Source: a virus
Reading direction: 5' to 3' (one strand)
Virus record (IMG/VR): IMGVR_UViG_3300014838_000019
Location: 1 to 64,000 of that record
Length of the DNA stretch: 64,000 nucleotides
Each line of letters begins with the position of its first letter. Position 1 is the first letter of the stretch. The position numbers and the translations under genes are program-made. Positions 7,461 through 60,981 of the stretch are shown in pieces. The notes beneath the pieces were generated by a model. The model did no database searches. It was not told where the DNA came from and saw nothing but the letters and a program-made list of their open reading frames with translations.

Positions 7461-7467
7461 TTTTATC

Positions 7468-7785
7468 ATGAAAAACATTGAAGGTCTCGTCGTATCCGCC
7501 AAGTTGTTCTGCGTATTTGCTGGAACTAGCTTGCTCACTCTCCAAACTGGATTAGGTAGTTTAGCTCAATCAGATAAACCCGCCACCAATATCCAGTGGG
7601 CAATGGTTGTCGGTGGAAGTCTCGGTACGGGGCTTACGGCGGCTGGGGCTTTCTTGTCAAATGCGTTTGGAAACTACATGAATAACGTTAATATCAATGG
7701 AAATCCAATCACTTCTCAGACGGGAAGTATAAATCCTCTATTGACAGAAGTCAAAAAGGATGCTACAGTAAAGCCAGTTCTTTGA
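7468..7785 (+). CDS. small membrane protein, possible holin
   Basis: The ATG at 7468 lies 7 nt after tRNA-Leu; longer readings would enter the tRNA. The 105-residue product has two hydrophobic segments, about residues 6-28 and 44-66 (MVVGGSLGTGLTAAGAFLS), joined by a short polar turn, and a soluble C-terminal tail. Size and topology fit a class II holin, but no lysin gene is nearby, so this is only a suggestion. It is followed directly by a long structured non-coding stretch. Confidence 0.5.
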   Translation: MKNIEGLVVSAKLFCVFAGTSLLTLQTGLGSLAQSDKPATNIQWAMVVGGSLGTGLTAAGAFLSNAFGNYMNNVNINGNPITSQTGSINPLLTEVKKDATVKPVL

Positions 7786-8282
7786 GATTTTGTCGTAAGC
7801 GACTCTACGCTGGGGAGAAATCCTTAGAGGAAGTTCGCCGCTGCACAGCAGATGATTGGGAGAATTTGGTTACAATAGGATTGGTCAAGTCGTGAAGTCC
7901 GAAAATCAATCAGCAGAACCTTAATCACAACTGATTGACCCTTGCAACCATTTCGTTATTACCACAAATTAGCAGCAATCCTAAATAGGTCAAGTCTAGT
8001 GCTGGACGTTACTAAGACCGAGGTTGGAGCAGTCTCCTTTAACGGGGGACCAGTTGAAAGACTGAGAAAAATGTAGAGATAGACCATAACGGCGGCTAAA
8101 ACATGAGCTATAAACTCATGGGTGCGAACGACAATTTTTAAAAGTATGGGGAACGTCGAAAGACGCACTAGTCTCCATCAATATGTCATCTAAAAAATGA
8201 TGATGACAAAATTTATGCCCGTGGTCGGATTGGGTTGCTGCGATACCACCGACATATTTGAGCAGAACATGGGCATCATTAT
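7786..8282 (+). ncRNA. candidate large structured RNA upstream of tRNA-Ala(CGC)
   Basis: About 495 nt hold no convincing gene on either strand but many local hairpins. These include GTCG-TAAG-CGAC (7792-7803), ATGAG/CTCAT (8103-8119), CGTC-GAAA-GACG with a GNRA loop (8154-8165), GTCATC/GATGAC (8185-8207) and a closing pair ATGCCC/GGGCAT (8215-8220 with 8271-8276) around GTGG/CCAC. The last stem ends 6 nt before tRNA-Ala, and a terminator follows the tRNA. Size and tRNA-array context recall the phage GOLLD and ROOL large RNAs, but no family can be assigned by eye. Confidence 0.5.
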
Positions 8283-8360
8283 GGGGCCGTAGCACAATTG
8301 GTAGTGCAGCACGTTCGCAACGTGAAGGTTTTGGGCGTTCAACTCGCCTCGGCTCCACCA
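8283..8360 (+). tRNA. tRNA-Ala(CGC)
   Basis: The acceptor GGGGCCG/CGGCTCC contains the G3-U70 wobble that identifies alanine tRNAs, then A and CCA. The anticodon arm CACG/CGTG has loop TTCGCAA, giving CGC. The T-loop is TTCAACT. It is followed by a strong terminator. Confidence 0.9.
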
Positions 8361-8370
8361 TCATAACAAA

Positions 8371-8410
8371 AAGAGAGGCGACTGAAAAGTCGCCTCTCTC
8401 TTTTTTTTTT
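8371..8410 (+). terminator. rho-independent terminator (works in both directions)
   Basis: GAGAGGCGACT (8373-8383), loop GAAA, AGTCGCCTCTC (8388-8398), then an uninterrupted T run to 8410. It ends the ncRNA/tRNA-Ala transcript. An A-rich left flank lets it also serve the minus-strand gene that ends at 8420. Confidence 0.92.
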
Positions 8411-8419
8411 AGTTATACC

Positions 8420-8638
8420 TTATGCGATACAACTAATTGGTGCGGGGTTTGACCCGACGTGAATGTCACGGTTTCCATGTAGAACTCCAAATACATTAAG
8501 CAACCATAGTATGATGGCTATGACTGCTACAACGTTAATGATTTTCTTGATGGCATCCGGCATTGGGATGTACATGTTGACGAGCCATAGGAGAACTCCT
8601 ATGATTGCCAACGTTACGATGATTGCTATGAGGGACAT
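8420..8638 (-). CDS. small two-helix membrane protein, Thivi_2564-like
   Basis: This 72-residue protein begins MSLIAIIVTLAIIGVLLWLV and has a second hydrophobic helix at about residues 33-52 (INVVAVIAIILWLLNVFGV). A short loop NMYIPMPDAIKK joins them. This pattern matches small bacterial Thivi_2564-type membrane proteins of unknown role. It is encoded on the minus strand and convergent with the tRNA-Ala transcript across the shared terminator. Confidence 0.65.
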   Translation of the reverse strand: MSLIAIIVTLAIIGVLLWLVNMYIPMPDAIKKIINVVAVIAIILWLLNVFGVLHGNRDIHVGSNPAPISCIA

Positions 8639-8651
8639 ATATTTCCTTTTG

Positions 8652-8726
8652 TTATTTGATGTGTTCCAAACGCCATATAATTACCCCTATCATACCACTC
8701 GCTAAGATTAGAGTAAAGAATAGCAT
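8652..8726 (-). CDS. possible 24-residue membrane peptide
   Basis: A minus-strand reading of 24 codons starts with ATG at 8726 and encodes MLFFTLILASGMIGVIIWRL plus a short polar end (EHIK). It forms a single hydrophobic helix with a positively charged end and lies between two minus-strand genes. A GGA lies about 8 nt upstream of the start. Such short readings arise by chance, so confidence is low. Confidence 0.3.
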   Translation of the reverse strand: MLFFTLILASGMIGVIIWRLEHIK

Positions 8727-8744
8727 ATGATTCCATTTTGGTTC

Positions 8745-9137
8745 TTAGTCTCGTGGGGCACCGGCAGACAATCCAAGGTTGGTTGTTGTTCGATCTTGTG
8801 ATTTGTCAGGTAGTGTTTGAACCACATTGACACTAATTTGGTTATAGATGAATCCATCGGCGTTAACTGTTGCAGATTGATGCAAATCTATATTGACCCA
8901 TTTACGTGCGGTTTTTAGATTCATATCCGTATCTGCTCCAACCAAGAATACCGTTACTCCCGGCGTGGAAGATGCAGTTATGATTGCGGTCATTCCATCA
9001 ACTGATGGTTTGATTGTAGATTCTCCACTGATAACTTTCCAAGTAATCGTCTTTACACGACCTACTTTTCCAGAAAAACTCTGTGGATTCATCGTCAACG
9101 TAATCGTTTGATTTACTGTTAGTGTTAGATTTATCAT
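8745..9137 (-). CDS. putative virion protein with Ig-like/BIg-type beta domain
   Basis: This 130-residue protein is dominated by beta strands. The pattern NLTLTVNQTITLTMNPQSFSG, then ITWKVISGE, and VDGMTAIITASSTPGVTVFLVGAD resembles bacterial Ig-like domains used in surface and virion proteins. It has no signal peptide. It lies on the minus strand next to a serine/glycine-rich fibre-like gene. A virion or fibre decoration role is inferred from composition and neighbours. Confidence 0.5.
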   Translation of the reverse strand: MINLTLTVNQTITLTMNPQSFSGKVGRVKTITWKVISGESTIKPSVDGMTAIITASSTPGVTVFLVGADTDMNLKTARKWVNIDLHQSATVNADGFIYNQISVNVVQTLPDKSQDRTTTNLGLSAGAPRD

Positions 9138-9214
9138 ATAGTTTCCTATTTTATTTGAATTAAAATTGATATTCTCGTGAAATATTTCTATTTCACGAGA
9201 ACATTTGTTACGCT

Positions 9215-10180
9215 TTATCGGCGATTAGATTTATTAAACTGACGAGCCAAAGATGCCGAAGCATTTTGGACGACTGTATAAGTTGCAACTACAGTTCCAT
9301 TCAAGATAACATTCTCAACCACTTGGTTATTGAATGAACCCGTGAATCCACCAACGTAAGTTCCACTGATGGAGTTTCCGTTAATTGAACCCGTGAATGC
9401 TCCACTACCAATACCGTTCATGCTTGCGCTGACGACCGTTGCGGTCGAACTAGACAAGTCGGTGATTGTTCCAGTGTAAGTTCCAACATAGGAACCACTC
9501 AATGGACCTTGGGTAGAACCGCTATATGATCCACTGTATGATCCGCTATTTGAACCACTGATTGATCCACTGTATGATCCACTATTTGAACCGCTTGAAT
9601 TTGCTGATGCATATGCATCGAGGGCGTCAAGTTTAGCTGCTATGGTGCTGGCTCGTGCTGAGAGAGCATCAAGCAATGCTTGGTCACTTTGAGTGAATAC
9701 AGAACCCGAAGAGTTCTGAAGGGAGTTGATTGTAGTTACGAGGTAACTTACGTCACCTTGTAAATCTGTCACCGCAATGTCCATACGGTCATTGAATGCG
9801 TTCTGCGTTGTTGCGAAGTTTGATACTTGGCTCATAATTTTTTCCTCTGTTTGTTTCAAGTCGAGTTTACTCACGAATTCATGGGACTTGAACCATTCCA
9901 ATTCGTTTTTGGTTTGTTTTTCAAGATTTTCTAGTTCTTGAAAAATTCTTTGAAAGAGATGATATGTGGGATGATTATCCACATGATGTTCTCTTAATTC
10001 CGTAGGACTGATGCGTGTGACTACAGCATTACTAGCTGTGGGTGCATGAGGTACGGATTCTGTCGTTGTAAATTGTGTTTCTCCGGTGAATGTCGAAATT
10101 CTATTCACTGGGTCACTTAAAAGTATAGTTGGCGATACTGCCGACTGTGTAATGGGATAGTGACGATGAAAATAGTTCAT
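9215..10180 (-). CDS. fibre-like protein with Ser/Gly/Tyr repeats
   Basis: This 321-residue protein has an N-terminal region without repeats, then a helical stretch (about residues 75-190) likely to form a trimeric coiled coil. A run of SGSNSGSYSGS-type repeats follows (about 195-235), then alternating SGSYVGTYTG and GSFTGSINGNS beta-type repeats. This layout is typical of trimeric phage fibres or whiskers. It is on the minus strand, apart from the main tail module, and might be a decoration or neck fibre. Confidence 0.55.
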   Translation of the reverse strand: MNYFHRHYPITQSAVSPTILLSDPVNRISTFTGETQFTTTESVPHAPTASNAVVTRISPTELREHHVDNHPTYHLFQRIFQELENLEKQTKNELEWFKSHEFVSKLDLKQTEEKIMSQVSNFATTQNAFNDRMDIAVTDLQGDVSYLVTTINSLQNSSGSVFTQSDQALLDALSARASTIAAKLDALDAYASANSSGSNSGSYSGSISGSNSGSYSGSYSGSTQGPLSGSYVGTYTGTITDLSSSTATVVSASMNGIGSGAFTGSINGNSISGTYVGGFTGSFNNQVVENVILNGTVVATYTVVQNASASLARQFNKSNRR

Positions 10181-10433
10181 ATTTTACCTTATGGTTATTC
10201 GTGGATGTAAATTCTACGCACGAGTTTATACGTGATTGTATAGTTAACGGGATATTGAACGGGAAGATAAACAAACTGTCATCCGATGGAATGGGTCTAT
10301 AGGACGGACACCTTTTTGAGGTATGAGAACTTGGAAGTTATTCCATCTCGACTTGCTTATACATATTGGAACGAATAATTAATATCGATTATATCGCAAT
10401 ATATATTTTATAATATTGCTGTAAATTTATCAC
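10181..10433. other. divergent intergenic region with an A+T-rich inverted repeat
   Basis: No gene is evident between the minus-strand fibre gene and the plus-strand zinc-ribbon gene. The region must hold the minus-strand promoter. A perfect inverted repeat GCAATAT/ATATTGC with a 10-nt A+T centre occurs at 10396-10419, just upstream of the plus-strand promoter. It could be an operator or a weak terminator. Confidence 0.4.
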
Positions 10434-10461
10434 TTGACTTCTTCTTGAGATGTGATATTAT
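10434..10461 (+). promoter_or_regulatory. sigma70-type promoter, leaderless output
   Basis: TTGACT (10434-10439), a 16-bp spacer and TATTAT (10456-10461). The expected start is about 10468, the A of the next ATG. Confidence 0.65.
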
Positions 10462-10467
10462 GATGGC

Positions 10468-10638
10468 ATGATTTGCGTCATTTGTAAAAAATGTAAAAAA
10501 GAATTGACACTCCCCGGCGGTTTATTATTTTCTCCTCCGATTGGGGGGCAAGTGAACAAATATCATTTGTGCCTCAGTTGTTACGTGTCTTTAATTCAAT
10601 GGCTTAACACTCCATTATCGAAAAATAAAAAGTTATGA
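10468..10638 (+). CDS. 56-residue zinc-ribbon protein
   Basis: This short gene starts with the ATG at 10468 and ends with TGA at 10638, overlapping the next ATG by 4 nt (ATGA), which supports it being translated. The product has CVICKKC at the N-terminus (Cys3, Cys6, Cys9) and CLSC (Cys35, Cys38), fitting a zinc ribbon. A promoter 6 nt upstream predicts a leaderless mRNA. Function unknown. Confidence 0.65.
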   Translation: MICVICKKCKKELTLPGGLLFSPPIGGQVNKYHLCLSCYVSLIQWLNTPLSKNKKL

Positions 10639-11138
10639 TCCTAACAGACTACAGAATTGGCGTATTCAACTCCCATTGGTGGAAGGACGTTTGGTATAAT
10701 CAAGTAGCGTCTAGGTGGAACCCTCGTAATAAATGGCTTACCAAGAAGATTCCTCGCACTTGGATGGACAAAGATCATATTATTGAAATCTGTGTCCTAG
10801 AATCACTCAAACATTATATTGAGGGAGAAGAAGCTTTGGGCAAGGATATGTGTCATTTTCAATCGAGTCAGGATGACCCGTCATTTCCCGGATGGAAAAA
10901 GGAATCAGATCGAGAAGTGAAGAAGCAGTATGAATTAGTAACGATCAAGTTGGACTCTCTCGAAAAGCAACTGAAAATAGAATGGAATAATGTTCCGACT
11001 CGGAATTGGCGAGATGTTACTAAGCTTGACTACGAGCAGACTTATGGCAAGATTGATCGGTTGGAGAAAGAAATATACGATTTGCAGACTGAGATAATGG
11101 TTTGGGTCGTAAAGAATCGCAATATACTTTGGACATGA
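10635..11138 (+). CDS. hypothetical protein, 167 aa
   Basis: A soluble, tryptophan-rich protein (WWKDVWYNQ near the start) with a long charged helical C-terminal half (about residues 90-160) likely to form a coiled coil. It is translationally coupled to the preceding zinc-ribbon gene and followed after 1 nt by a cysteine-rich gene. No family was recognised. Confidence 0.6.
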   Translation: MILTDYRIGVFNSHWWKDVWYNQVASRWNPRNKWLTKKIPRTWMDKDHIIEICVLESLKHYIEGEEALGKDMCHFQSSQDDPSFPGWKKESDREVKKQYELVTIKLDSLEKQLKIEWNNVPTRNWRDVTKLDYEQTYGKIDRLEKEIYDLQTEIMVWVVKNRNILWT

Positions 11139-11139
11139 T

Positions 11140-11517
11140 ATGAAAGTTACAATTCCCGCAAGAACAGAAGAAATCACACGATGTTATCATTCGTGCCCAT
11201 ATTTTGGGCTTGATGGTGGTCCTAGTTCCGTAATGTATTGTAAGCATCCATATTGGGATGACAAGGGAAGTTATGCTGGATTTATTATTTCTCACCCCGA
11301 ATGCGATGACGGATTCCCATCACTGTGCCCATTGTATAAAGAAAATGGAATGTCACCACCACCGAAAGAGCAACCGATAAAGGAAAAATCATATTTGACT
11401 GATGAAGAACGAGCCAAGTTTTCTGTCGGTGAGGCATTGAATGTTGAGTATCAGCGACGTTTCGATGAAGTGCTTCTCAATGCACTTTTGAAAATTCCAA
11501 TTGATAATAAATTATGA
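11140..11517 (+). CDS. cysteine-rich hypothetical protein
   Basis: This 125-residue protein has cysteines at positions 15, 19, 34, 54 and 63 (CYHSC, YCKHP, ECDD, LCPL), suggesting a metal site or cluster in the N-terminal half. The C-terminal third is a charged helix. It overlaps coaD by 4 nt, so the two are co-translated. Confidence 0.55.
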   Translation: MKVTIPARTEEITRCYHSCPYFGLDGGPSSVMYCKHPYWDDKGSYAGFIISHPECDDGFPSLCPLYKENGMSPPPKEQPIKEKSYLTDEERAKFSVGEALNVEYQRRFDEVLLNALLKIPIDNKL

Positions 11518-11972
11518 AAACAAATGCGACAATCGGTCTGTATGCGGGCAGTTTTAATCCGTTTCATGTTGGGCATCTATCAATCGTGAATCAAGCCAAG
11601 GAAGTATTTAATAAAGTAATTGTTGCACAAGGTATCAACCCCGACAAGAATTATGATGACAGTGCTCTTTTTCCCGAGTCGTATTTGGCATCTATAAATG
11701 TTGAGACCCGATCATACAACTGTTTGTTGACTACGCTCATAGAGAAAATAGAGCAGCAATATTCAGCTACCAATGTTGTCTTGGTTCGTGGGTTAAGGAA
11801 TGGTGCCGATTTGGAATACGAGCAGAACCTTATTGCGTTTTTACGAGGGTTCAAGCCCGGACTCAAGGTCACGGCGTTCTATTGCGACCCGATATATCGC
11901 CACGTCAGTTCGAGTGCTCTGCGGGGCATTCAGAAGTTTTCCGAACAGGAATACAGAAAATACGTGGTCTGA
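11514..11972 (+). CDS. coaD: phosphopantetheine adenylyltransferase (CoaD-like)
   Basis: This 152-residue nucleotidyltransferase matches CoaD in length and motif order. It has GSFNPFHVGH (residues 12-21, the HxGH ATP site), RGLRNGADLEYEQN (92-105) and HVSSSALRGI (130-139, the ISSS/TxxR-like loop). CoaD transfers AMP from ATP to 4'-phosphopantetheine to make dephospho-CoA, the step before CoA. It is a metabolic gene carried by the phage, perhaps to sustain CoA. A related nicotinamide-nucleotide adenylyltransferase role is less likely because the RGLRNGADLEYE motif is CoaD-type. It ends a coupled four-gene operon from 10468. Confidence 0.88.
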   Translation: MKTNATIGLYAGSFNPFHVGHLSIVNQAKEVFNKVIVAQGINPDKNYDDSALFPESYLASINVETRSYNCLLTTLIEKIEQQYSATNVVLVRGLRNGADLEYEQNLIAFLRGFKPGLKVTAFYCDPIYRHVSSSALRGIQKFSEQEYRKYVV

Positions 11973-11992
11973 AATATAAATAATCATGGGAC

Positions 11993-12021
11993 TTGACATT
12001 TTCGACTTCCCGTGCTATATT
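11993..12021 (+). promoter_or_regulatory. sigma70-type promoter for ncRNA/tRNA-Ala(UGC)
   Basis: TTGACA (11993-11998), a 17-bp spacer and TATATT (12016-12021) in TATATTTATG. The predicted start is near 12028, so a roughly 200-nt RNA precedes the tRNA. Confidence 0.75.
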
Positions 12022-12027
12022 TATGCG

Positions 12028-12228
12028 TAAGATTTGAGATGCACACAGCGACAAAAAATCTATGAGCCGAAAGACTCACCATGAGTCATCCTCTCCCTCG
12101 CAAAAAAGAGAGGCGGAAGAATAACCGTGCTGTTTTTATAGTGCAGCGTAAAATTGGGCATCTCGCAAAATTTCCTATTCACCAATGGTGGAAAAGGTTG
12201 GGATAGACGTTCAGCGTCATCCTTTTAT
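12028..12228 (+). ncRNA. candidate structured RNA upstream of tRNA-Ala(UGC)
   Basis: A 7-bp long-range stem GAGATGC/GCATCTC (12036-12042 with 12158-12164) encloses smaller hairpins, including TGAG/CTCA around CCGAAAGA (12063-12078) and CCTCTC/GAGAGG (12090-12113). Two further hairpins follow: CACC-AAT-GGTG (12180-12190) and GACG-TTCAG-CGTC (12206-12218). The last ends 10 nt before tRNA-Ala. It has its own promoter. There is no long reading frame that avoids the tRNA. Confidence 0.55.
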
Positions 12229-12304
12229 GGGGCATTAGCTCAGTCAGTAGAGCGTCTGCTTTGCAAGCAGAAGGTGCCGGGAGCAAAGCCCGGATGCTCC
12301 ACCA
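12229..12304 (+). tRNA. tRNA-Ala(UGC), non-canonical T-loop
   Basis: The acceptor GGGGCAT/ATGCTCC carries the alanine G3-U70 pair, with A and CCA. The D-arm GCTC/GAGC and anticodon arm TCTGC/GCAGA (loop TTTGCAA, anticodon TGC) are canonical. The T-stem CCGGG/CCCGG is perfect, but the loop is AGCAAAG in place of TTCRANN. Confidence 0.9.
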
Positions 12305-12351
12305 ATCTAAATATTTCGATTCGTTTCCGTTTCTCTCCACTATTTATTGGT

Positions 12352-13143
12352 ATGAAGATGATACCAATCACTTGCCACAAATGTTCTAATATTGTTGACC
12401 GGCCAAAATCCGAGGTTGACCGACAAATTAGAAATGGGCGGAAATATTTTTTCTGCTCATTGTCTTGCTCCACATCGGCAACAAAAACCACAACTCGCAA
12501 TATAAAATCACGATGTCTATTTTGTCATAAAGAGTTTGATTCGACTACTCGTAAAAAAGCAAAAGTATGTTGTAGCAAAGAGTGTGCAATAAAATATTCT
12601 CAATCATTTGTGGACCCGGTAATTCACAAAAAATCTATTCAGCGGCCATCACATTATCCCCGAGTCGAGAATTTCGAGTGCGTTATATGTGGAACGACGT
12701 TTAATAAGAATATAAAATCTCACGTCGAAACATATCAGACCTGTTCGGATAAATGTTTTAGAACACTACTCCAAGTAAAGGCAAGAGCCAATCCAAATTG
12801 CGGCGGGGATACGAATTATCGAAGGTATAAATATAATGGGATATGGATGGACTCAAAATGGGAAATAGAATTAGCCAAATGGATGGATGCCAATAGTATA
12901 TCGTGGGAGAGGGACAATAAGAAACATCAATTCATATGGACGGATAAAGACGGAAATAAGCGGCGATATTATCCCGACTTTTACCTTCCATCTTATAATG
13001 TGTATTTAGACCCGAAGAACAAATATCTCATTAAAGTTGATGATTACAAAATAAATCAAGTCATTCGGGAAAATAAAATTTGTCTTGTTTGGGGTCTGTT
13101 AGAAAATGTGAAAAAAGAAGTTGACATTTTGCGGGGAGTCTGA
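12352..13143 (+). CDS. putative homing endonuclease, zinc fingers plus PD-(D/E)XK-like domain
   Basis: The ATG at 12352 was chosen because upstream codons run through tRNA-Ala. The 263-residue product has several CxxC zinc motifs in its first two thirds (CHKC, CLFC, CVIC with paired downstream cysteines). The C-terminal domain reads SKWEIELAKWMD, then RRYYPDFYLP and YLDPKNKYL. The glutamate, the PDF aspartate and the D-x-K segment match the order of a PD-(D/E)XK nuclease, as in Vsr-like homing enzymes. It sits between a tRNA and a structured RNA, a usual place for a free-standing homing gene. A TATTTATT box lies 4 nt before the start. Confidence 0.65.
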   Translation: MKMIPITCHKCSNIVDRPKSEVDRQIRNGRKYFFCSLSCSTSATKTTTRNIKSRCLFCHKEFDSTTRKKAKVCCSKECAIKYSQSFVDPVIHKKSIQRPSHYPRVENFECVICGTTFNKNIKSHVETYQTCSDKCFRTLLQVKARANPNCGGDTNYRRYKYNGIWMDSKWEIELAKWMDANSISWERDNKKHQFIWTDKDGNKRRYYPDFYLPSYNVYLDPKNKYLIKVDDYKINQVIRENKICLVWGLLENVKKEVDILRGV

Positions 13144-13149
13144 TATATT
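13121..13149 (+). promoter_or_regulatory. sigma70-type promoter for ncRNA/tRNA-Met
   Basis: TTGACA (13121-13126), a 17-bp spacer and TATATT (13144-13149) in TATATTTATG. It lies at the end of the homing endonuclease gene. The predicted start is about 13156. Confidence 0.75.
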
Positions 13150-13155
13150 TATGAC

Positions 13156-13375
13156 CATAGCTCATCTACCAAGTAAGTGTAGAAGGAGTAACGGGTCCGT
13201 CAAGTGGCGAACCCATCAATTTGCCTATCGCCCATGTGGTGAAAAGGTATCTGAAGTCACTGCGAAGTGACCTCTGACAACTGCGGGAGTCGGCAGACAA
13301 TAAAATAAGACGGAACTCCAATACCTTATGGTATTGCGAATCAAACCGAGGGGCACGGTCTCTCGGTCAGTTTAT
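13156..13375 (+). ncRNA. candidate structured RNA upstream of tRNA-Met
   Basis: About 220 nt without a gene show several clear hairpins: GGGT/ACCC (13193-13214), GTCACT-GCGA-AGTGAC with a GNRA loop (13256-13271), AATACC-TTAT-GGTATT (13320-13335) and CCGAG/CTCGG (13346-13366). The last ends about 10 nt before the tRNA. A strong promoter lies immediately upstream. No known family was recognised by eye. Confidence 0.55.
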
Positions 13376-13453
13376 TGCGGGCTAGGCAGTTCTGGTGAAC
13401 TCCTTTGTCTCATAAGCAAATCTAGAAAAGTTCAATTCTTTTGCCCGCTACCA
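13376..13453 (+). tRNA. tRNA-Met(CAU), initiator-like acceptor end
   Basis: The anticodon arm TTTGT/GCAAA has loop CTCATAA, giving CAT. Counting back from the encoded ACCA, the acceptor is TGCGGGC/GCCCGCT, which leaves positions 1 and 72 as a T-T mismatch. A 1-72 mismatch is an initiator hallmark, but the GGG/CCC anticodon stem of initiators is absent. It could be elongator Met, an initiator-like tRNA, or Ile after lysidine modification. Confidence 0.82.
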
Positions 13454-13517
13454 ATTTTGCTCTTGTAAATGTCCCGATCCAAAGTCATAGACTTGAGAAG
13501 AAGGTATTGAGCATTAT

Positions 13518-13591
13518 GGGGTCGTCGTTCAACGGTAGGACTTGACTATGGCATAGTTAGGATAGGGGTTCGATTCCCCTCGGCTCCACCA
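13518..13591 (+). tRNA. tRNA-Ala(GGC)
   Basis: The acceptor GGGGTCG/CGGCTCC has the G3-U70 alanine identity pair, then A and CCA. The anticodon arm TGACT/AGTTA has loop ATGGCAT, giving GGC. The T-arm AGGGG/CCCCT with TTCGATT is canonical. Confidence 0.9.
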
Positions 13592-13638
13592 AGTATTTGA
13601 CTGGAATAGTTTCAGTCATTAGAGAAATAAAACATAAC

Positions 13639-14202
13639 ATGAAGAAAACATTATCATTATTTGCAACCCTCATCCTTGCGGTAGGTCTATTCGCAGGATG
13701 TGCATCTCCAAACGGAGCATCATCCCTCACCCCCGCTCAAGTAGCAACCGTTGGTGTGGTTGTAACTCAAGCCGCCAATGTTGGTGCTGCATATGCAATT
13801 CAGCAAGACAAAACGAACGCCAAGTATTTTGTTCTTGCCGATGCCGCCATTGACACCTTGGTTGTAAGCAGCAATGCAAGTCCAACCGAACTTGAAAATG
13901 CTCTTGCTCCAATCGAAGGAAGCAATCAATTGGTTAATGTTGCCATCAGCGGAGCACTCGTCGCTTATGACCTCACATTGAGCCAATATTCAATCACGAA
14001 TGCCGCTGACGCCGATGCCATTATATGGCTTGGTGATATAGAAGTCGGATTCAAGGAAGCATTGGTCTCGACTGGTGCAACAGGATTGACAGTCGCCCAC
14101 ATTGATCCTCCTTATTACTTGCAGCACGTTGGAACAGGTATCGTAGTTAATACGAATGCTATCAAGTTTACAATCGAAGAAGCCAAGCCAGTGACAAAGT
14201 AA
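13639..14202 (+). CDS. lipoprotein, 187 aa
   Basis: The start at 13639 gives an ideal signal peptide: MKKT, a hydrophobic core and lipobox LFAGC (Cys at about 21). The in-frame codons upstream do not fit a signal peptide. The mature protein is Ala/Val/Thr-rich with predicted helices (TPAQVATVGVVVTQAANVGA) and no recognised domain. It is the fourth lipoprotein in the accessory region, followed by a strong terminator. The role is unknown. Confidence 0.7.
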   Translation: MKKTLSLFATLILAVGLFAGCASPNGASSLTPAQVATVGVVVTQAANVGAAYAIQQDKTNAKYFVLADAAIDTLVVSSNASPTELENALAPIEGSNQLVNVAISGALVAYDLTLSQYSITNAADADAIIWLGDIEVGFKEALVSTGATGLTVAHIDPPYYLQHVGTGIVVNTNAIKFTIEEAKPVTK

Positions 14203-14217
14203 ATTAACTTTAACGCA

Positions 14218-14251
14218 TATCCCTCGCTTCGGCGAGGGATTTTTTTTTTTG
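14218..14251 (+). terminator. rho-independent terminator
   Basis: CCCTCGC (14221-14227), UUCG tetraloop, GCGAGGG (14232-14238), followed by a T run to 14251. It ends the lipoprotein transcript just before the tRNA-Gln promoter. Confidence 0.93.
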
Positions 14252-14261
14252 TAGAAAGTGT

Positions 14262-14289
14262 TTGACATTTGGAAAAGGTGTGGTATATT
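14262..14289 (+). promoter_or_regulatory. sigma70-type promoter for tRNA-Gln and downstream RNAs
   Basis: TTGACA (14262-14267), a 16-bp spacer and TATATT (14284-14289) in TATATTTATA. The start is expected near 14296-14299, a few bases before tRNA-Gln at 14303. Confidence 0.75.
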
Positions 14290-14302
14290 TATATCTGACG
14301 AT

Positions 14303-14376
14303 TGGAGTTTAGTGTAGTGGTAGCACGACTCTCTCTGAAAGAGCAAGTGAAAGTTCGATTCTTTCAACTCCAGCCA
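14303..14376 (+). tRNA. tRNA-Gln(CUG)
   Basis: The acceptor TGGAGTT/AACTCCA has U1-A72 and discriminator G, both glutamine identity features, then CCA. The anticodon stem CTCT/AGAG with loop CTCTGAA gives CTG. The outermost pair of this stem is an A-C mismatch. Confidence 0.9.
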
Positions 14377-14388
14377 ATTTTAGTTTTT

Positions 14389-14572
14389 GATGTAGCAGAC
14401 ATACCAAAATTCTATGTGCCCGTCATGTGGACATATGGGACGAACGTCAGCAACAAGTAGGTTCTTAAGTTTGAACCGAAGATGACGATGGGAGGTCACA
14501 ACCCAAAGAGTGACTTTGCGAAGACTGCGAGTAAGGTCTAGGTCAACTACGAACTGTCGTAAGGGCTACATC
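14389..14572 (+). ncRNA. candidate structured RNA between tRNA-Gln and tRNA-Ser(GGA)
   Basis: A perfect 8-bp stem GATGTAGC/GCTACATC (14389-14396 with 14565-14572) encloses about 170 nt. Inside, CGTCAT/ATGACG (14421-14426 with 14482-14487) encloses GGTTC/GAACC (14460-14477), and a separate GTCAC/GTGAC hairpin follows (14495-14514). This is a nested multi-branch fold. The closing stem ends 7 nt before tRNA-Ser. No gene is evident. Confidence 0.6.
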
Positions 14573-14579
14573 AATTTTA

Positions 14580-14667
14580 GGCGAATTGCCGGAACGGTAA
14601 CGGGCCAGCTTGGAAAGCTGAGGCAAGTTAACTACTTGAGTGGGTTCGACTCCTACATTCGCCGCCA
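14580..14667 (+). tRNA. tRNA-Ser(GGA)
   Basis: The acceptor stem is GGCGAAT/ATTCGCC with discriminator G and CCA. The anticodon arm CAGC/GCTG has loop TTGGAAA, giving GGA. A long variable arm follows (CAAGTTAACTACTTG). Confidence 0.92.
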
Positions 14668-14787
14668 ATTTTAAATGCGACTGCAACTAGCGATGAAGGT
14701 TCGATTCCTTAGTAAAGTGGAACGCAAGTCAGGGGCATAATCTGATAGGGTTATGTCAGCATTACGATTATGGATATACAGTATCGA

Positions 14788-14878
14788 GGTGAGTTGGTAG
14801 AGATGGATTATTGCACCTGACTCGAAATCAGGAGTGGCCTCAAAACCACCGGGGGTTCGAATCCCTCACTTACCGCCA
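14788..14878 (+). tRNA. tRNA-Ser(CGA)
   Basis: The acceptor stem is GGTGAGT/ACTTACC with discriminator G and CCA. The anticodon arm CCTGA/TCAGG has loop CTCGAAA, giving CGA. The variable arm and T-arm are essentially identical to tRNA-Ser(UGA) at 2419, suggesting duplication and anticodon change. Confidence 0.93.
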
Positions 14879-24738: not shown

Positions 24739-25146
24739 ATGTCCCTTATAAAAAATACTCCAATCGGTATTACGTTTCCCATCCGAGATGGGCGTGATGG
24801 GTATTTTGAGCAGTCAACGGATAGTTTCACGGCTTACCGGATGAATATCATCAATTTGCTTAGAACTAACCAAGGAGAACGAAGGTTGAATCCAACGTTT
24901 GGTTCTAGATTGGGAACTTTGGTATTCGATCCGAATGATGATTTTCTACTGAAGAAGATTGAAAACATAATTCAGCAAGATATATCCGAATGGATTCCTG
25001 GCATCACAGTGACAAATGTAGCGGTCGAGGGAAACCAAAATACAAATACTGATAATTATACATTGCAAATTTCCGTCACATATGTCATAAACGCAATCAA
25101 TGCGGCGGATGTAGTGGGGATTAACCTCAATGTGAACAAAGTTTAA
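24739..25146 (+). CDS. baseplate wedge protein, gp25-like
   Basis: This 135-residue protein matches the gpW/gp25 family in length and in the central motif LLRTNQGERRLNPTFGSRL, which is followed by a hydrophobic-D-P turn (LVFDPND). In T4, gp25 bridges the hub and the gp6 ring and nucleates the sheath. It lies directly before the gp6-like gene, the order seen in T4-type and many other contractile tails. There is no lysozyme signature, as expected. Confidence 0.9.
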   Translation: MSLIKNTPIGITFPIRDGRDGYFEQSTDSFTAYRMNIINLLRTNQGERRLNPTFGSRLGTLVFDPNDDFLLKKIENIIQQDISEWIPGITVTNVAVEGNQNTNTDNYTLQISVTYVINAINAADVVGINLNVNKV

Positions 25147-27138: not shown

Positions 27139-28026
27139 ATGGAATATAAAAAACAATGTCCAACTTGTGGGAAAGAGATTGTGTTCTCTTGTAAACAATC
27201 ATTACGATTATCCATAAAAAATAATCGTGATTGTAAACAGTGGTCTGCATTAAAACGTGCTCCGAAATCAGAAGAAACTAAATGTAAAATTTCACAGACC
27301 TTAATTGGAAGAACAATACCACGAGATATAGTTGAAAAAATAAGAACTACGCTCAAGGTTAAATTTAATACTCCCGAATATAAAAATAAGTTCAAGATAC
27401 AAAATGGGGGAGAAAATAATCCCAATTTTGGAAATCATCATGATGAGAAAATAAGAAACAAGATTTCTATTCAAACGAAAATAGCAATAAGTTCGGAGGA
27501 TGTAAGAAATCGTCACTTAGAGTCGCATAGAACAGAAGAATATAGAAATAAAATTTCTCAACTTAATCTTGGGCGAAAGCATTCATGTAATAGTCGAATG
27601 AAAATGAAAGGTCCAAGACCAAGTTTACAAGGCGAAAACAATCCGAATTTTGGAAAACACAGAAAGCATTCGGATGAAGATAGAAGAAAAATGAGAATAG
27701 CTTTCGTGACTCGTCTCGACGAAATGTTTCGAGATGGGTGTGATATAACATATCCAAATTATAATCCGAACGCCTGTAAAATAATTACAGAATATGGGAG
27801 GCAAAATGGATATAAATTCCAACACGCTCTCAAGGGTGGAGAATATCATATCAAAGATTTGGGATATTGGGTAGATGGATATGATAAAGAAAAGAATGTG
27901 GTTATAGAAATTGATGAGCATCATCACAATAAGCCAAGTCAAAGAGAAAAAGACATTCGTCGTCAAAAGGAAATAGAGAAACATCTTGGTTGCAAGTTTA
28001 TACGTCTGCCTTTCGTTAAACCTTGA
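27139..28026 (+). CDS. homing endonuclease: zinc finger, NUMOD3 repeats and Vsr-like nuclease
   Basis: This 295-residue protein has CPTCGKEI at its N-terminus, then NUMOD3-type DNA-binding segments with GENNPNFGNHH (about residue 94) and GENNPNFGKHR (about 165). The C-terminal nuclease has GYWVDGYDKEKNVVIEIDEH followed by HHNKPSQREKDIRRQKEI and CKFIRL. The EIDEHHH cluster fits an EDxHD/Vsr-like PD-(D/E)XK homing enzyme. It is inserted between baseplate genes and is a selfish element. A shortened copy of the same protein lies at 28969. Confidence 0.8.
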   Translation: MEYKKQCPTCGKEIVFSCKQSLRLSIKNNRDCKQWSALKRAPKSEETKCKISQTLIGRTIPRDIVEKIRTTLKVKFNTPEYKNKFKIQNGGENNPNFGNHHDEKIRNKISIQTKIAISSEDVRNRHLESHRTEEYRNKISQLNLGRKHSCNSRMKMKGPRPSLQGENNPNFGKHRKHSDEDRRKMRIAFVTRLDEMFRDGCDITYPNYNPNACKIITEYGRQNGYKFQHALKGGEYHIKDLGYWVDGYDKEKNVVIEIDEHHHNKPSQREKDIRRQKEIEKHLGCKFIRLPFVKP

Positions 28027-28027
28027 C

Positions 28028-28035
28028 TATTTATA
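28028..28035 (+). promoter_or_regulatory. TATTTATA late-type box, leaderless output
   Basis: It occurs in TTGACTATTTATATCTGAT immediately before ATGATTAAG. The T4 spacing of 6 nt after the box falls on 28041-28042, the ATG itself. The same block recurs at 28601. Confidence 0.5.
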
Positions 28036-28041
28036 TCTGAT

Positions 28042-28593
28042 ATGATTAAGTTGAAAGAATTAATAATGGAGACCAAACGAAAACAGTATGGATGTGTTAT
28101 GGCGTGTATTGATGGAGGCATTAAATCCGAAATTCTAAAATTTAATAAATCCATTATTGAAAATGAAATCATTTATGATAACAAAGAAAAAGAATTTGGA
28201 CGGGAGACCGACCCTCACATCACCATTAAATTTGGGTTGACTAAAAATTATACCCGAAAAGATATGGAAACTTTTTTGAAAGATGTATCGCCGTTTACTA
28301 TAAATATTGATGGCGTAAGTGTATTTGAAAATGATGATTTTGACGTTGTTAAAATGGATGTGTCTGGAGATGAACTGAAGAAATTAAATAAGAAATTTAG
28401 TAAATTGCCAAATGAAGATGAACATCCAGATTATCATCCACATTGTACTTTAGCATATGTAACTCATGGTGAAGGAGATAAATTTAACGGCAAATCAAAG
28501 AAATTTTTAAATATAGAAATTAGTCGAATAGTATATTCTTGTTCCGATGGAAAGAGTTATTATAACTTAAAATATTCCTATCCAAAATCTTAA
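28042..28593 (+). CDS. 2H phosphoesterase with a capsid-targeting-like leader
   Basis: This 183-residue protein starts MIKLKELIME and then has two H-x-T motifs, DPHITIKFGL (His59, Thr61) and HPHCTLAYV (His134, Thr136), with the spacing of 2H phosphoesterases. Phage anti-CBASS enzymes such as Acb1 belong to this superfamily and cut cyclic oligonucleotide signals; others act on RNA ends. The first ten residues are shared in pattern with the genes at 28620 and 40198 and resemble T4 capsid-targeting sequences, ending in I-M-E like a prohead-protease site. It may be packaged and injected. The substrate is unproven. Confidence 0.7.
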   Translation: MIKLKELIMETKRKQYGCVMACIDGGIKSEILKFNKSIIENEIIYDNKEKEFGRETDPHITIKFGLTKNYTRKDMETFLKDVSPFTINIDGVSVFENDDFDVVKMDVSGDELKKLNKKFSKLPNEDEHPDYHPHCTLAYVTHGEGDKFNGKSKKFLNIEISRIVYSCSDGKSYYNLKYSYPKS

Positions 28594-28605: not shown

Positions 28606-28613
28606 TATTTATA
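28606..28613 (+). promoter_or_regulatory. TATTTATA late-type box, leaderless output
   Basis: It lies in a second copy of TTGACTATTTATATCTGAT (28601-28619), directly before ATGATTAGG. The expected start coincides with the ATG at 28620. Confidence 0.5.
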
Positions 28614-28619
28614 TCTGAT

Positions 28620-28964
28620 ATGATTAGGATGAAGACATTATTGTTGGAGACTATGGTGAAATTGACTCATGAAGATGCTCAAGAAGTGATGCATAAAATT
28701 GGAGTGTTAGCTGATAATACAGATTTACAAGAGGACTATGGTGTTACATCAGAACAAGCGAAGGCATTGGTACACAGCATTCCTCAGAATGGGGGAGAAT
28801 GGCTCATTCCAGATTGGGGAATAAATGCTGTTAGAGGTGAAATAGAAGACCATATACAGGTGCTTAGAGATATAGCTATGGATGCATACAATAGCAATGA
28901 AAAAGGACAATTTTTGAGAATAAGTAAACAAGCCAAACGATTAACTGCCTTATTTGAGTTATAA
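28620..28964 (+). CDS. small protein with capsid-targeting-like leader
   Basis: This 114-residue protein starts MIRMKTLLLETMVKL, parallel to MIKLKELIMET of the preceding gene; LLE could be a prohead-protease site. The rest is soluble and helical (EDAQEVMHKIGVLAD, and a C-terminal basic helix ISKQAKRLTALFEL). No enzyme motif was recognised. The same promoter block and leader as its neighbour suggest a shared fate, possibly as internal capsid proteins. Confidence 0.6.
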   Translation: MIRMKTLLLETMVKLTHEDAQEVMHKIGVLADNTDLQEDYGVTSEQAKALVHSIPQNGGEWLIPDWGINAVRGEIEDHIQVLRDIAMDAYNSNEKGQFLRISKQAKRLTALFEL

Positions 28965-28968
28965 ATAT

Positions 28969-29139
28969 ATGAAGGAAATAAATTCCAATGAAGAATTGAA
29001 GTGGAAACGAGATTGTCCGTCTTGTGGAGAGGAACTTATTTATGGAATATTAAGAGAGAAGGATATTCGTCGTCAGAATGAAATAGAACAATATCTTAAA
29101 TGTAAGTTTATAAGAATTCCCATCAAATACAAGGTATAA
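28969..29139 (+). pseudogene. internally deleted remnant of the 27139-type homing endonuclease
   Basis: A 56-codon reading from ATG at 28969 joins a CPSCGEELIYG zinc-finger start to REKDIRRQNEIEQYLKCKFI. The first part mirrors CPTCGKEIVFS and the second mirrors REKDIRRQKEIEKHLGCKFI of the enzyme 1 kb upstream. The roughly 230 residues between them, including the catalytic cluster, are missing while the frame is kept. It is best read as a decayed second copy. Confidence 0.7.
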
Positions 29140-40197: not shown

Positions 40198-40737
40198 ATG
40201 ATTAAACTCCTCGACCTTCTTGTAGAATATCATGATACTAATATTTGGTATCATGGGTCTGCGTCAGGAGATTTGCGTGGAGGTAAAACAGGTCTTCATT
40301 TAGGAACTGCTTTGGCGGCTAAACAAGCATTGGAAGCAACAATTGGGATACCCATCGAAGGATACTGGGATGGAACTCGTGAATATGGAAAAACTTTACT
40401 TTGTGGTAAAAATACGTTAAAACATAGAGGAATTTTTCCAACGGGGATTAATTGTGATGTTACGGAGGAAGATTTCTATGTTACGCCAGAAATCATTCGC
40501 CGACGGTCATCCTTTATAACATCATCAATGAAACCCTCTATAAAAAAGTATAAGATAGTTTGTAGAATGACAAATACTCCGGAAAATCCATATCCCGACT
40601 TTAAAGCCAACGGATATATGGGCGGGTTACTGAAACGAGGAATAGCGAAAAATGGATTTTATTACAAAAACGAGTCCGAAGATTATGGGAGTATATCCGC
40701 TGTAGTTCCAAATGGAACTTGCGTGAAAGAGGTATGA
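40198..40737 (+). CDS. ADP-ribosyltransferase-like protein with capsid-targeting-like leader
   Basis: The ATG at 40198 (MIKLLDLLVEYHDTNIWYHG) was chosen over 40171 because it reproduces the leader and the TATTTAT box spacing seen at 28042 and 28620. The 179-residue product has WYHGS (His19) followed by GLHLGTALAAKQAL (about 32-45), which resembles the start of ADP-ribosyltransferase-type NAD-binding folds. A Tyr/Glu pair later could complete the site. T4 packages and injects the ADP-ribosyltransferase Alt, also targeted by an N-terminal leader. The ART assignment is tentative. Confidence 0.55.
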   Translation: MIKLLDLLVEYHDTNIWYHGSASGDLRGGKTGLHLGTALAAKQALEATIGIPIEGYWDGTREYGKTLLCGKNTLKHRGIFPTGINCDVTEEDFYVTPEIIRRRSSFITSSMKPSIKKYKIVCRMTNTPENPYPDFKANGYMGGLLKRGIAKNGFYYKNESEDYGSISAVVPNGTCVKEV

Positions 40738-58678: not shown

Positions 58679-59368
58679 ATGAAAAAATGCAAGGGAATGT
58701 CAAATTTAGAGATAGTTTCCCATTATCTCAATGGAACTCGCCCGTTTACTCAATTATCAATGAATATTTCCGAAAAAGAAAAGCATCGAGAAAATGGAGA
58801 AAAATGGACTGTGGATGGAAAGGAATATAAAAGGGAAAATGGGAAAACAATTTGTATTACAAAAACACAAGGAGATATTATTCGGGAGGCTATTGGAAAC
58901 GGATTAAATTGTAAACAATGTGGAGCGCAATATAAGTGGGTAGGAAAAAAAGACCAAAAATTTCTACGACGATGTGGATTATGCATGGATTGTTTGATTG
59001 ATTATGAAACAAAACTTAGAATTTTGGGAATTTATCCAAATTATGAAATATATAAATTAGCATCGTATGAATTGGATTCGTTAAAAACCCGACGGTCTCA
59101 ATTTGAAGAGGTCATTGAATATTTTACGAAAACTAATGGAGATATAATAAAAGTCGCAGAATCCGAATATGACCCCAATATAGTATGGAAAAATACTAAT
59201 AAGACTAAAATCCTCGCCGACTCCAAGAAAGATTTGGGCGAAGTCAATAAAAGAATTGATGCTCTCGAACAAATCCGAGATGAATGTAAGGCAAAGTATA
59301 TCGAATTAGCAACCAAATACGGACTTGAAATTTTATGCCATACGGACAAATCTCTTATCAAGAGTTAA
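58679..59368 (+). CDS. zinc-finger/coiled-coil protein, possible small terminase
   Basis: The ATG at 58679 gives MKKCKGMSNLEIVSHYLNGT; earlier codons overlap the GIY-YIG gene. The 229-residue protein has a CxxC pair (NCKQCGAQYKW and CGLCMDC at about 83-107) and a long charged coiled coil from about 125 to 225. It overlaps the large terminase gene by 34 nt, the position of T4 gene 16. Coiled-coil oligomers are typical of small terminases, but the zinc site is not, so the role is only suggested by position. Confidence 0.5.
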   Translation: MKKCKGMSNLEIVSHYLNGTRPFTQLSMNISEKEKHRENGEKWTVDGKEYKRENGKTICITKTQGDIIREAIGNGLNCKQCGAQYKWVGKKDQKFLRRCGLCMDCLIDYETKLRILGIYPNYEIYKLASYELDSLKTRRSQFEEVIEYFTKTNGDIIKVAESEYDPNIVWKNTNKTKILADSKKDLGEVNKRIDALEQIRDECKAKYIELATKYGLEILCHTDKSLIKS

Positions 59369-60981
59369 TAAAAAACGAGTATAAGAAGTGCATGGAATCT
59401 CCCGTGTACTTCATGAAACATTATGTCAAGATTAAGCATCCTATGCGGGGTACTATTCTTTTCGATTTATTTAGTTTTCAAGAGGAAACTCTGGATTCGT
59501 TTCATAAATACAAATTTAACATCATCCTAAAATCCCGTCAGATGGGTATCTCAACCCTTGTTGCTGCGTATTCCCTTTGGCTGATGACATTTTTGAAGGA
59601 TAAGAATGTCCTTCTGATTTCATTGCGCCAAGACGATGCCAAAGATGTTGTAGCTAAAGTCAAAGATGCCTATGAAGCATTGCCTAAATGGTTGAAAGTC
59701 AAGTGTCTTGAAGATAACCGTCTATCCATGAAATTCAGCAATGGATCGGCGATCAAGGCTGCATCTACGACTAAAAAATCAGGTGTTGGTCAAGCACTCT
59801 CCCTTCTAATTATCGACGAAGCTGCACTTATTGATGAAGCCGAAGAGTTGTGGACTTCTGCACAACCTACTCTGTCAACTGGTGGTAACGCCATCATCCT
59901 TTCTACCCCTCGTGGTGTTGGTAATTGGTTCCACAAAATGTGGCAAGGTGCTGAAGCTGACAATATGGATAACACTACGGGTAAGAATGGATTTCATCCT
60001 ATTACTCTCCCGTGGCAGTTACATCCTGAACGTGATGACGAATGGCGTAGGGTTGAAGGAGAAAAGCAAGGAAATCCCAAGAAGGCTTCACAGGAGTATG
60101 ACTGTAACTTTCTTGCATCAGGTGATAACGTTGTTGATCTTAACATCATTGAATTTTACAAAAAGAACAAAGCCCTCGACCCCATCGAATGTCGTGGTAT
60201 GGACAGGAACTTGTGGATATGGGAATATCCCGACCGAAATCATGTCTATGTAATTGCGGCTGACGTAGCCCGGGGCGACGGAGCCGACTATTCTGCTTGC
60301 CATGTGTTAGATATAAGCCGAGAGAAACCAGTTCAAGTTGCCGAGTATAAAGGAAAGATAGAAACCAAGGATTTTGGTGACTTTCTGGTGGCGTTGGCTA
60401 CAGAATACAATGGCTGCTTGCTTGTAGTTGAACGTGAAAACGTTGGGTGGGGTACTATTCAAGAAATTCTTGACCGTGGATATTCGAATACTTTTTATAG
60501 TTCTGCTGACCTTAAATATGTAGAAGTTCAACGTCAGTTGAATAATAAGTGGGCGTCTGAAGATAAGAAATTGGTCCCGGGATTCAGCACGAATATGAAA
60601 ACCCGCCCATTGATTATCGACAACATGGAGCATTACATGCGTCAGATGGCAATTGAGATTAGATCAAAGCGCACTTTGGCAGAATTGGAAACGTTTATTT
60701 GGAAGAACGGAAAACCTATAGCAATGGAAGGGTATAATGACGACTTAGTTATGTCTTTGTGTATTGCGCTGTGGGTTCGAGATACGGCTCTTCGTCTTCG
60801 TCAAGAAGGCGTCGAGTTGACCAAACTCGCTGTAGGAGGAATTACATCGACTCAAAAGGATAATACGCCTGTTTATAAAGCGAAACAGCAGCAAGCGGGA
60901 TTCAATTCATGGAAGATGAACACTGGACGCCAAGGATTTGGTAAAGAAAATCAAACGGATATACGGTGGCTTTTAGGTTAA
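59335..60981 (+). CDS. terL: terminase large subunit, gp17-like
   Basis: This 548-residue protein has both halves of a headful-packaging motor. The ATPase has a Walker A-like KSRQMGIST (66-74) and Walker B LLIIDEA (157-163), then STPRG coupling motif. The nuclease has Asp310 in AADVARGDGADYS, Glu366 in VVERENVG and Asp470 in GYNDDLVMS. It powers DNA entry through the portal and cuts concatemers. Length is close to T4 gp17. It is followed by a late-type promoter and the portal gene. All catalytic residues are present. Confidence 0.95.
   Translation: MPYGQISYQELIKNEYKKCMESPVYFMKHYVKIKHPMRGTILFDLFSFQEETLDSFHKYKFNIILKSRQMGISTLVAAYSLWLMTFLKDKNVLLISLRQDDAKDVVAKVKDAYEALPKWLKVKCLEDNRLSMKFSNGSAIKAASTTKKSGVGQALSLLIIDEAALIDEAEELWTSAQPTLSTGGNAIILSTPRGVGNWFHKMWQGAEADNMDNTTGKNGFHPITLPWQLHPERDDEWRRVEGEKQGNPKKASQEYDCNFLASGDNVVDLNIIEFYKKNKALDPIECRGMDRNLWIWEYPDRNHVYVIAADVARGDGADYSACHVLDISREKPVQVAEYKGKIETKDFGDFLVALATEYNGCLLVVERENVGWGTIQEILDRGYSNTFYSSADLKYVEVQRQLNNKWASEDKKLVPGFSTNMKTRPLIIDNMEHYMRQMAIEIRSKRTLAELETFIWKNGKPIAMEGYNDDLVMSLCIALWVRDTALRLRQEGVELTKLAVGGITSTQKDNTPVYKAKQQQAGFNSWKMNTGRQGFGKENQTDIRWLLG

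What the first reader, a model, noticed from the sequence alone, without database searches (positions are those of the whole stretch)
28042..28593. Possible injected anti-signalling 2H phosphoesterase
The protein has both H-x-T motifs of 2H phosphoesterases. Phage enzymes of this superfamily (Acb1) degrade the cyclic oligonucleotides of CBASS defence. If the leader sends it into the capsid, the enzyme would act at the first moment of infection, before any phage gene is expressed. That would be an unusual delivery route for an anti-defence enzyme.
Basis: inference. Interest (0 to 1): 0.7.

Follow-up and report, generated by a model that had tools for sequence, protein, structure and literature searches.

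The report
Phage-packaged 2H RNA-end enzyme, probable cargo
A T4-like environmental phage attaches a ten-residue packaging-type tag to a small enzyme that probably trims RNA ends, and its relatives put the same tag on rows of unrelated enzymes, which suggests that these phages inject a toolkit of ready-made proteins at the start of infection.

Summary
In detail: ORF 28042-28593 encodes a conserved 2H phosphoesterase (HIT 59-61, HCT 134-136), and its model shows a confident 2H fold behind a floppy 11-residue leader. The leader (MIKLKELIME|T) has the register of the T4 internal-protein capsid-targeting sequence, with an L/I-x-E site at residue 10. The same contig encodes a gp21-family prohead protease. 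In relatives the leader occurs on 96 distinct proteins in about 41 payload groups (2H, GNAT, ART, Nudix, CCA-adding enzyme, lysozyme), often in head-to-tail arrays with 4-nt overlaps. Packaging is therefore well supported, but not shown. The anti-CBASS part is not supported specifically. The protein lies outside the Acb1 clade (100/100), its Acb1-model score is marginal, and structure cannot separate Acb1 from RNA-end enzymes. Context favours RNA ends: a CCA-adding-type nucleotidyltransferase lies near or is fused to the 2H gene in 19 of 80 homologous loci, against 0 of 78 loci of related phages. My reading is a capsid-delivered RNA-end (probably tRNA-repair) phosphodiesterase. Nucleotide-signal cleavage remains a live rival, already predicted in print for 2H domains of polyvalent proteins.

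The parts
28028..28041 (+). TATTTATATCTGAT box directly before the start codon, probable late-promoter-like element
   Evidence: Same box before 28620 and before leader genes of relatives; 5 genes of the contig have TATTTATA within 30 nt upstream, 0.41 expected.
28042..28071 (+). Leader codons 1-10, MIKLKELIME, predicted capsid-targeting propeptide cut after Glu10
   Evidence: pLDDT<50 at residues 1-11; residues conserved through different codons; L/I-x-E ending at residue 10 in 21 of 591 genes, background 1.3 per position.
28042..28593 (+). 2H phosphoesterase gene (183 aa); mature enzyme predicted from residue 11
   Evidence: Pfam; homologs; structure and fold searches.
28216..28224 (+). Catalytic motif 1, H59-I-T61
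   Evidence: Invariant in 41 sequences.
28441..28449 (+). Catalytic motif 2, H134-C-T136
   Evidence: Invariant in 41 sequences.
28606..28619 (+). Second copy of the TATTTATATCTGAT box
28620..28964 (+). Second leader protein (MIRMKTLLLE|T, 114 aa), unknown domain; the same domain is fused to a leader-2H in L169/L240
40198..40737 (+). Third leader protein (MIKLLDLLVE|Y, 179 aa), ADP-ribosyltransferase-like; homologs are domains of large MuF/LPD22-type proteins
27139..28026 (+). NUMOD3 homing endonuclease upstream of the 2H gene
28954..29139 (+). Short remnant resembling the ends of the 27139 endonuclease
   Evidence: ORF sequence; no Pfam hit
24739..25146 (+). Baseplate wedge gp25 homolog (late structural context)
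   Evidence: GPW_gp25, 49.9 bits
25149..27128 (+). Baseplate-J/gp6-like protein (late structural context)
   Evidence: weak Baseplate_J, 17.9 bits, below cut-off; position after gp25
59335..60981 (+). T4-type large terminase
   Evidence: Terminase_6N 58.1 bits; 48% identical to Flavobacterium phage immuto
61049..63169 (+). T4-type portal protein; the gp21-family prohead protease follows outside the window (record 66,706-67,323)
   Evidence: Portal_T4 245.6 bits; Peptidase_S77 94.4 bits

Best explanation
The gene encodes an internal head protein. Its ten-residue leader takes the 2H enzyme into the prohead, the phage's gp21-family protease cuts after Glu10, and the leaderless enzyme (mature N-terminus TKRKQYGC...) is injected with the DNA. 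In the cell its HxT/HxT site hydrolyses 2',3'-cyclic phosphate (or related 2'/3'-phosphate) ends of RNA, most likely cleaved tRNA, so that partner enzymes such as a CCA-adding nucleotidyltransferase, sometimes packaged by the same leader, can rebuild the ends before phage gene expression. Shown here: fold, motifs, leader, protease gene, shared leader on unrelated payloads, CCA-enzyme linkage in relatives. Inferred: packaging, cleavage, injection, substrate, benefit. My stepwise estimates are 2H catalysis 0.85, packaging and processing 0.75, RNA-end substrate 0.5.
For: Leader: MIKLKELIME|T matches T4 IPIII's CTS, in which 10 residues suffice, positions 4 and 7 target and 8 and 10 process, and gp21 cuts after L/I-x-E (PMC9026906). 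In 30 sampled leaders residue 7 is always Leu (5 codons) and residue 4 is L/M/F (8 codons). [LIM][LIV]xE ends at residue 10 in 21 of 591 genes against 1.3 per position background; the motif occurs at 22 starts against 0.35 expected. The contig encodes Peptidase_S77 at 94.4 bits, and its protease orthologs share LLME near their own N-termini. 96 distinct leader proteins fall in 41 payload groups, many in tandem with -4 nt spacing; families are 2H, GNAT, ART, Nudix, PolyA_pol, lysozyme. An ortholog in G009 starts MSENVKYEYGCVMA, without leader. 2H homologs are domains of 1467-2126-aa proteins, and the 40198 payload is a domain of a MuF_C protein. RNA ends: PolyA_pol/CCA-type enzyme in 19 of 80 2H loci, 0 of 78 related loci; fused to 2H in L170 and L193; RlaP in the contig.
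Against: No proteomics or biochemistry exists for this phage. No PolyA_pol or RNA_ligase match was found in the 75.8-kb record, though the record may be incomplete. Many 2H homologs have no recognisable leader, so packaging is not universal for the family. PMC5512222 found no link of these 2H domains to RNA ligases. The structure cannot tell RNA-end enzymes from Acb1.
Confidence: 0.42

Rival explanations
1. One reading: a packaged and injected 2H enzyme that degrades immune nucleotide signals (CBASS cyclic di/trinucleotides, CRISPR cA4/cA6, 2'-5' oligoadenylate).
For: Acb1 Pfam model passes its cut-off (29.5 vs 27 bits); Foldseek's best solved match is Acb1 7t26 (8.3e-6); Acb1 W74 and F107 align with invariant Phe95 and a Tyr/Phe/His at 128; proposed for injected 2H domains in PMC5512222 and PMC9503650.
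Against: T4 Acb1 scores 202.7 bits on PF23474 and only 13 on 2_5_RNA_ligase2, the reverse of this protein. Acb1 forms its own clade (100/100) on a long branch. The column nearest Acb1's adenine-contacting E141 is variable here (alignment uncertain). The CCA-enzyme linkage points elsewhere.
Confidence: 0.22
2. The packaged 2H enzyme works on ADP-ribose metabolites, for example ADP-ribose 1'',2''-cyclic phosphate, together with co-packaged ARTs and Nudix enzymes.
For: Leader-2H fused to an ART/PARP-like domain in L125; Nudix gene next to 2H in several relatives; ADP-ribosylglycohydrolase in the contig; 2H acts on this substrate in other systems (PMC9503650).
Against: The ART fusion is seen once among the inspected homologs; the CCA-enzyme link is more frequent and spans distant clades.
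Confidence: 0.12
3. The leader is not a packaging signal but a conserved translation-start or recombination cassette that accompanies mobile genes.
For: The upstream box and first codons are similar at the DNA level in several copies; a homing endonuclease and a remnant flank the island; MI starts (ATGAT) suit 4-nt gene overlaps.
Against: Leucine and glutamate positions are kept through different codons; many leader genes lack the box; the L/I-x-E site sits at residue 10 and matches the protease family encoded.
Confidence: 0.17
4. An ordinary cytoplasmic RNA 2',3'-cyclic phosphodiesterase made during infection; the leader has no role.
For: Leaderless homologs are common.
Against: The gene lies among late baseplate/tail genes and carries a leader shared with unrelated proteins.
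Confidence: 0.07

Closest known systems
T4 internal proteins IPI, IPII, IPIII and Alt (capsid-targeting sequence)
   Same: Ten-residue N-terminal leader ending L/I-x-E, unrelated payloads behind one leader, gp21-family protease, T4-type portal and terminase.
   Different: Leader sequence MIKLK-x-LL-x-E instead of MKTYQEFIAE; payloads include 2H, GNAT, Nudix and CCA-adding enzymes; long tandem arrays; packaging not shown.
2H phosphoesterase domains of phage polyvalent/MuF proteins (PMC5512222, PMC9503650)
   Same: Same superfamily; close homologs are domains of 1.4-2.1-kaa phage proteins; predicted to be injected.
   Different: Here a single small protein with a cleavable-type leader, not a giant multidomain protein.
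Acb1 (T4 57B)
   Same: 2H fold with two HxT motifs; D-Y-x-P-H-x-T-hydrophobic-(A/S)-Y motif; partial aromatic correspondence.
   Different: Separate clade; low Acb1-model score; no clear E141/W147 equivalents; T4 Acb1 has no leader, though its gene neighbours ipI.
LigT/ThpR, Usb1 and cyclic phosphodiesterases
   Same: Best structural matches at Z about 14.
   Different: 10-15% sequence identity for most; cellular enzymes without a leader.
CCA-adding tRNA nucleotidyltransferases
   Same: Frequent neighbour; fused to a 2H domain in L170 and L193, where no HD domain was reported.
   Different: Partner, not homolog.

Membership tests
2H phosphoesterase superfamily | Two H-x-T/S motifs | tested here: met
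   H59-I-T, H134-C-T, invariant in 41 sequences
2H phosphoesterase superfamily | 2H fold | tested here: met
   Model pLDDT 89.7; many 2H structures at Z 10-14.6
Acb1 | Groups with Acb1 by sequence | tested here: not met
   Acb1 sequences separate at 100/100 on a long branch; few Acb1 rows and no other 2H outgroup
Acb1 | Passes the PF23474 cut-off | tested here: met
   29.5 vs 27 bits, but 2_5_RNA_ligase2 scores higher and true Acb1 scores 202.7
Acb1 | Base-binding residues Y12, W74, F107, E141, W147 | tested here: inconclusive
   W74 aligns with F95, F107 with H128; E141 and W147 lack clear equivalents; alignment uncertain
Acb1 | Cleaves 3'3'-cGAMP and related signals | not testable with these tools
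   needs enzyme assay
T4-type internal protein with CTS | About 10-residue leader ending L/I-x-E | tested here: met
   MIKLKELIME|T; positional peak at residue 10
T4-type internal protein with CTS | gp21-family protease encoded by the same phage | tested here: met
   Peptidase_S77 94.4 bits
T4-type internal protein with CTS | One leader on unrelated payloads | tested here: met
   41 payload groups, Pfam tally
T4-type internal protein with CTS | Found in virions, cleaved and injected | not testable with these tools
   needs virion proteomics
Phage polyvalent protein | Several disparate domains in one large polypeptide | tested here: not met
   Single 183-aa domain; only homologs are large
tRNA-end repair set with CCA-adding enzyme | CCA-adding enzyme nearby or fused | tested here: inconclusive
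   Met in 19 of 80 homologous loci; not found in the window's 75.8-kb record

The most novel reading that the evidence does not exclude
A whole group of uncultivated T4-like phages carries tandem, exchangeable cargo operons in which one short capsid-targeting leader delivers a ready-made RNA-repair and host-modification kit (2H phosphodiesterase, CCA-adding enzyme, ARTs, GNATs, Nudix) before any phage gene is expressed.
Probability: 0.33. Interest if true: 0.8.

Novelty: new variant of a known kind. Interest (0 to 1): 0.6.

Why it matters
If right, the leader is a sequence tag that reveals injected cargo directly from genomes, extending the small T4 internal-protein set to dozens of enzyme types. 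It would show that phages can deliver RNA-repair enzymes with their DNA, ready for the first minutes of infection. Cultured relatives with similar leaders (Flavobacterium phage immuto) make it testable.

Tried and rejected
Filing the protein as Acb1: rejected, because the tree and scores separate it, although Foldseek's first PDB row is Acb1; VIA-align puts Acb1 (12.9) among cellular 2H enzymes (12.8-14.6), so fold does not decide. Profile search of the PDB gave Acb1 and archaeal LigT at similar E-values (1e-4 and 2e-4). PADLOC hits among payloads were single and weak. A single-sequence scan for relatives of 28620 found none; the alignment scan found five. The 40198 model gave only weak matches (best Z 5.4), though nearly all listed rows are ART-superfamily folds. 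Virion proteomics of immuto was looked for and not found. Several text terms were rejected as too short. Bacterial-genome relatives were few and distant (35% identity at best) and were not pursued.

Full report
OBSERVATION. The window is bases 1-64,000 of a 75,836-base viral record. ORF 28042-28593 encodes 183 residues with HIT at 59-61 and HCT at 134-136. Pfam places it in the 2H superfamily: 2_5_RNA_ligase2 43.2 bits, Acb1 29.5, LigT 28.0, each over its cut-off. Forty homologs keep both motifs without exception. dN/dS against the 75% identical ortholog is 0.15/1.55. A ColabFold model built on window and locus sequences has mean pLDDT 89.7, with residues 1-11 below 50.

THE LEADER. The protein begins MIKLKELIME|T. 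Two more window proteins begin the same way: 28620-28964 (MIRMKTLLLE|T) and 40198-40737 (MIKLLDLLVE|Y). Contigs chosen by a baseplate gene, not by the leader, hold more. Among 591 genes of the window record and seven relatives, [LIM][LIV]xE ends at residue 10 in 21 genes, against 1.3 per position further in, and the full motif occurs at 22 starts against 0.35 expected from shuffles. The motif was written after seeing examples, so the positional peak is the cleaner test. In 30 sampled leaders residue 7 is always Leu, written with five codons, and residue 4 is L/M/F with eight, so the protein and not the DNA is conserved.

MATCH TO T4. In T4 the first ten residues of IPIII suffice for packaging; positions 4 and 7 target, 8 and 10 affect processing, and gp21 cuts after L/I-x-E (PMC9026906). 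T-even internal proteins share only this leader (PMC3012670). The present leader has hydrophobic residues at 4, 7 and 8 and Glu at 10. The record encodes a T4-type portal (245.6 bits) and a Peptidase_S77 prohead protease (94.4 bits), and protease orthologs share LLME near their own N-termini. The leader gene lies in the baseplate/tail cluster, after gp25, a baseplate-J/gp6-like gene and a homing endonuclease. I infer packaging and cleavage; no virion data exist.

INTERCHANGEABLE CARGO. Over all fetched phage loci there are 96 distinct leader proteins in 41 payload groups (single linkage merges some groups through fusions). Many follow one another with exactly 4-nt overlaps. A scan of 66 representatives found 2H (12), GNAT (8), ART-PolyVal (4), lysozyme (2), and single PolyA_pol/HD, Nudix, DnaJ, tRNA-ligase-CPD, KptA and dUTPase matches; several of the single matches are weak. 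Leader and payload separate freely: the ortholog in G009 starts MSENVKYEYGCVMA and has no leader, and the tree needs at least six gains or losses of the leader. Other homologs are domains of proteins of 1467-2126 residues. Homologs of the 40198 product lie in large proteins, one with MuF_C and LPD22 domains, types already predicted to be packaged and injected (PMC5512222).

WHICH SUBSTRATE? The Acb1 idea was tested in four ways. Scores: T4 Acb1 gets 202.7 bits on the Acb1 model and 13 on 2_5_RNA_ligase2, the reverse of this protein. Tree: five Acb1 sequences separate at 100/100 on a long branch; no other 2H family was included, so this shows distinctness, not what the nearest family is. Residues: Acb1 stacks bases on Y12, W74, F107 and W147 and contacts adenine with E141 (PMC9117128). 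W74 and F107 have aromatic counterparts (F95; Tyr/Phe/His at 128), but the column nearest E141 is variable. Fold: Z is 14.6 for TT0787, 14.2 for Usb1, 14.1 for LigT and 12.9 for Acb1, which does not decide.

Context gives a direction. A PolyA-polymerase/CCA-adding-type nucleotidyltransferase lies beside or near the 2H gene in 19 of 80 homologous loci (602 kb) and in none of 78 loci of related phages chosen by a baseplate gene (901 kb). In L170 and L193 it is fused to a 2H domain in one polypeptide. These cases span distant branches of the 2H tree. Several of these nucleotidyltransferases carry leaders themselves (MMLKQILTEG, MITFKNLLVEG, MIKLKSILLEG). The window's record has the RNA-repair nucleotidyltransferase RlaP but no detected CCA enzyme or RNA ligase. 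Homologous loci are not independent samples, and neighbours of the window's own gene are different: a homing endonuclease and the 28620 gene, whose domain is fused to a leader-2H in L169 and L240.

PRIOR KNOWLEDGE. Injected 2H domains that attack oligonucleotide signals were proposed in 2017 and 2022 (PMC5512222; PMC9503650). The 2017 paper noted no association with RNA ligases and favoured RNase or 2'-5' oligoA activity. RNA-end repair by 2H and CCA-adding enzymes in jumbo phages was proposed in 2021 (PMC7824862). T4 IP1-3 are injected inhibitors of restriction enzymes (PMC12373910). What I did not find described is a short T4-CTS-like leader on a stand-alone 2H enzyme, or long tandem arrays of leader-tagged enzymes including CCA-adding enzymes. 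The paper search covers open-licence papers only.

VERDICT. The enzyme and its leader are real. Packaging is likely, the RNA-end role more likely than the anti-CBASS role, and both are untested. New variant of a known kind; interest 0.6.

Noticed in passing
L096 (record G005, 95-115 kb): Cluster of about ten leader proteins with ART-like, metallopeptidase-like and unknown payloads, mostly in tandem on one strand.
   Followed up: partly
L126:4001-8512, L161:1218-5322: Tandem arrays of five or six leader genes, most with 4-nt overlaps, each with a different payload.
   Followed up: partly
L242 (Flavobacterium phage immuto_2-6A), gp076, gp077, gp092, gp093: Cultured relative with leader-like N-termini such as MENFDLKKFLVEN, a tractable model for virion proteomics.
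   Followed up: partly
window 2403, 7363, 14286, 24116, 28028, 28606: TATTTATA box upstream of several late genes and tRNA genes; it is the reverse complement of the T4 late promoter core TATAAATA.
   Followed up: partly
L002:13805-14635 and L002:12510-13670 (record 74.8-75.6 kb and 73.5-74.7 kb): ADP-ribosylglycohydrolase (121.7 bits) and RlaP RNA-repair nucleotidyltransferase encoded near the head genes.
   Followed up: no
L121 (phage T4, record 73,591-74,410): In T4 the acb1 gene (57B) is next to ipI, the gene of an injected internal protein.
   Followed up: no
L170, L193: CCA-adding enzyme with a 2H domain towards its C-terminal side; no HD domain was reported, so 2H may replace it.
   Followed up: partly
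window 113-14878: 15 tRNA genes in the first 15 kb of the window.
   Followed up: no
window 1937-2365: 142-aa ORF with HATVIRPGF and FHITIGNY segments, so it also has two H-x-T motifs and may be a second, unrelated-looking 2H-type protein; not examined.
   Followed up: no
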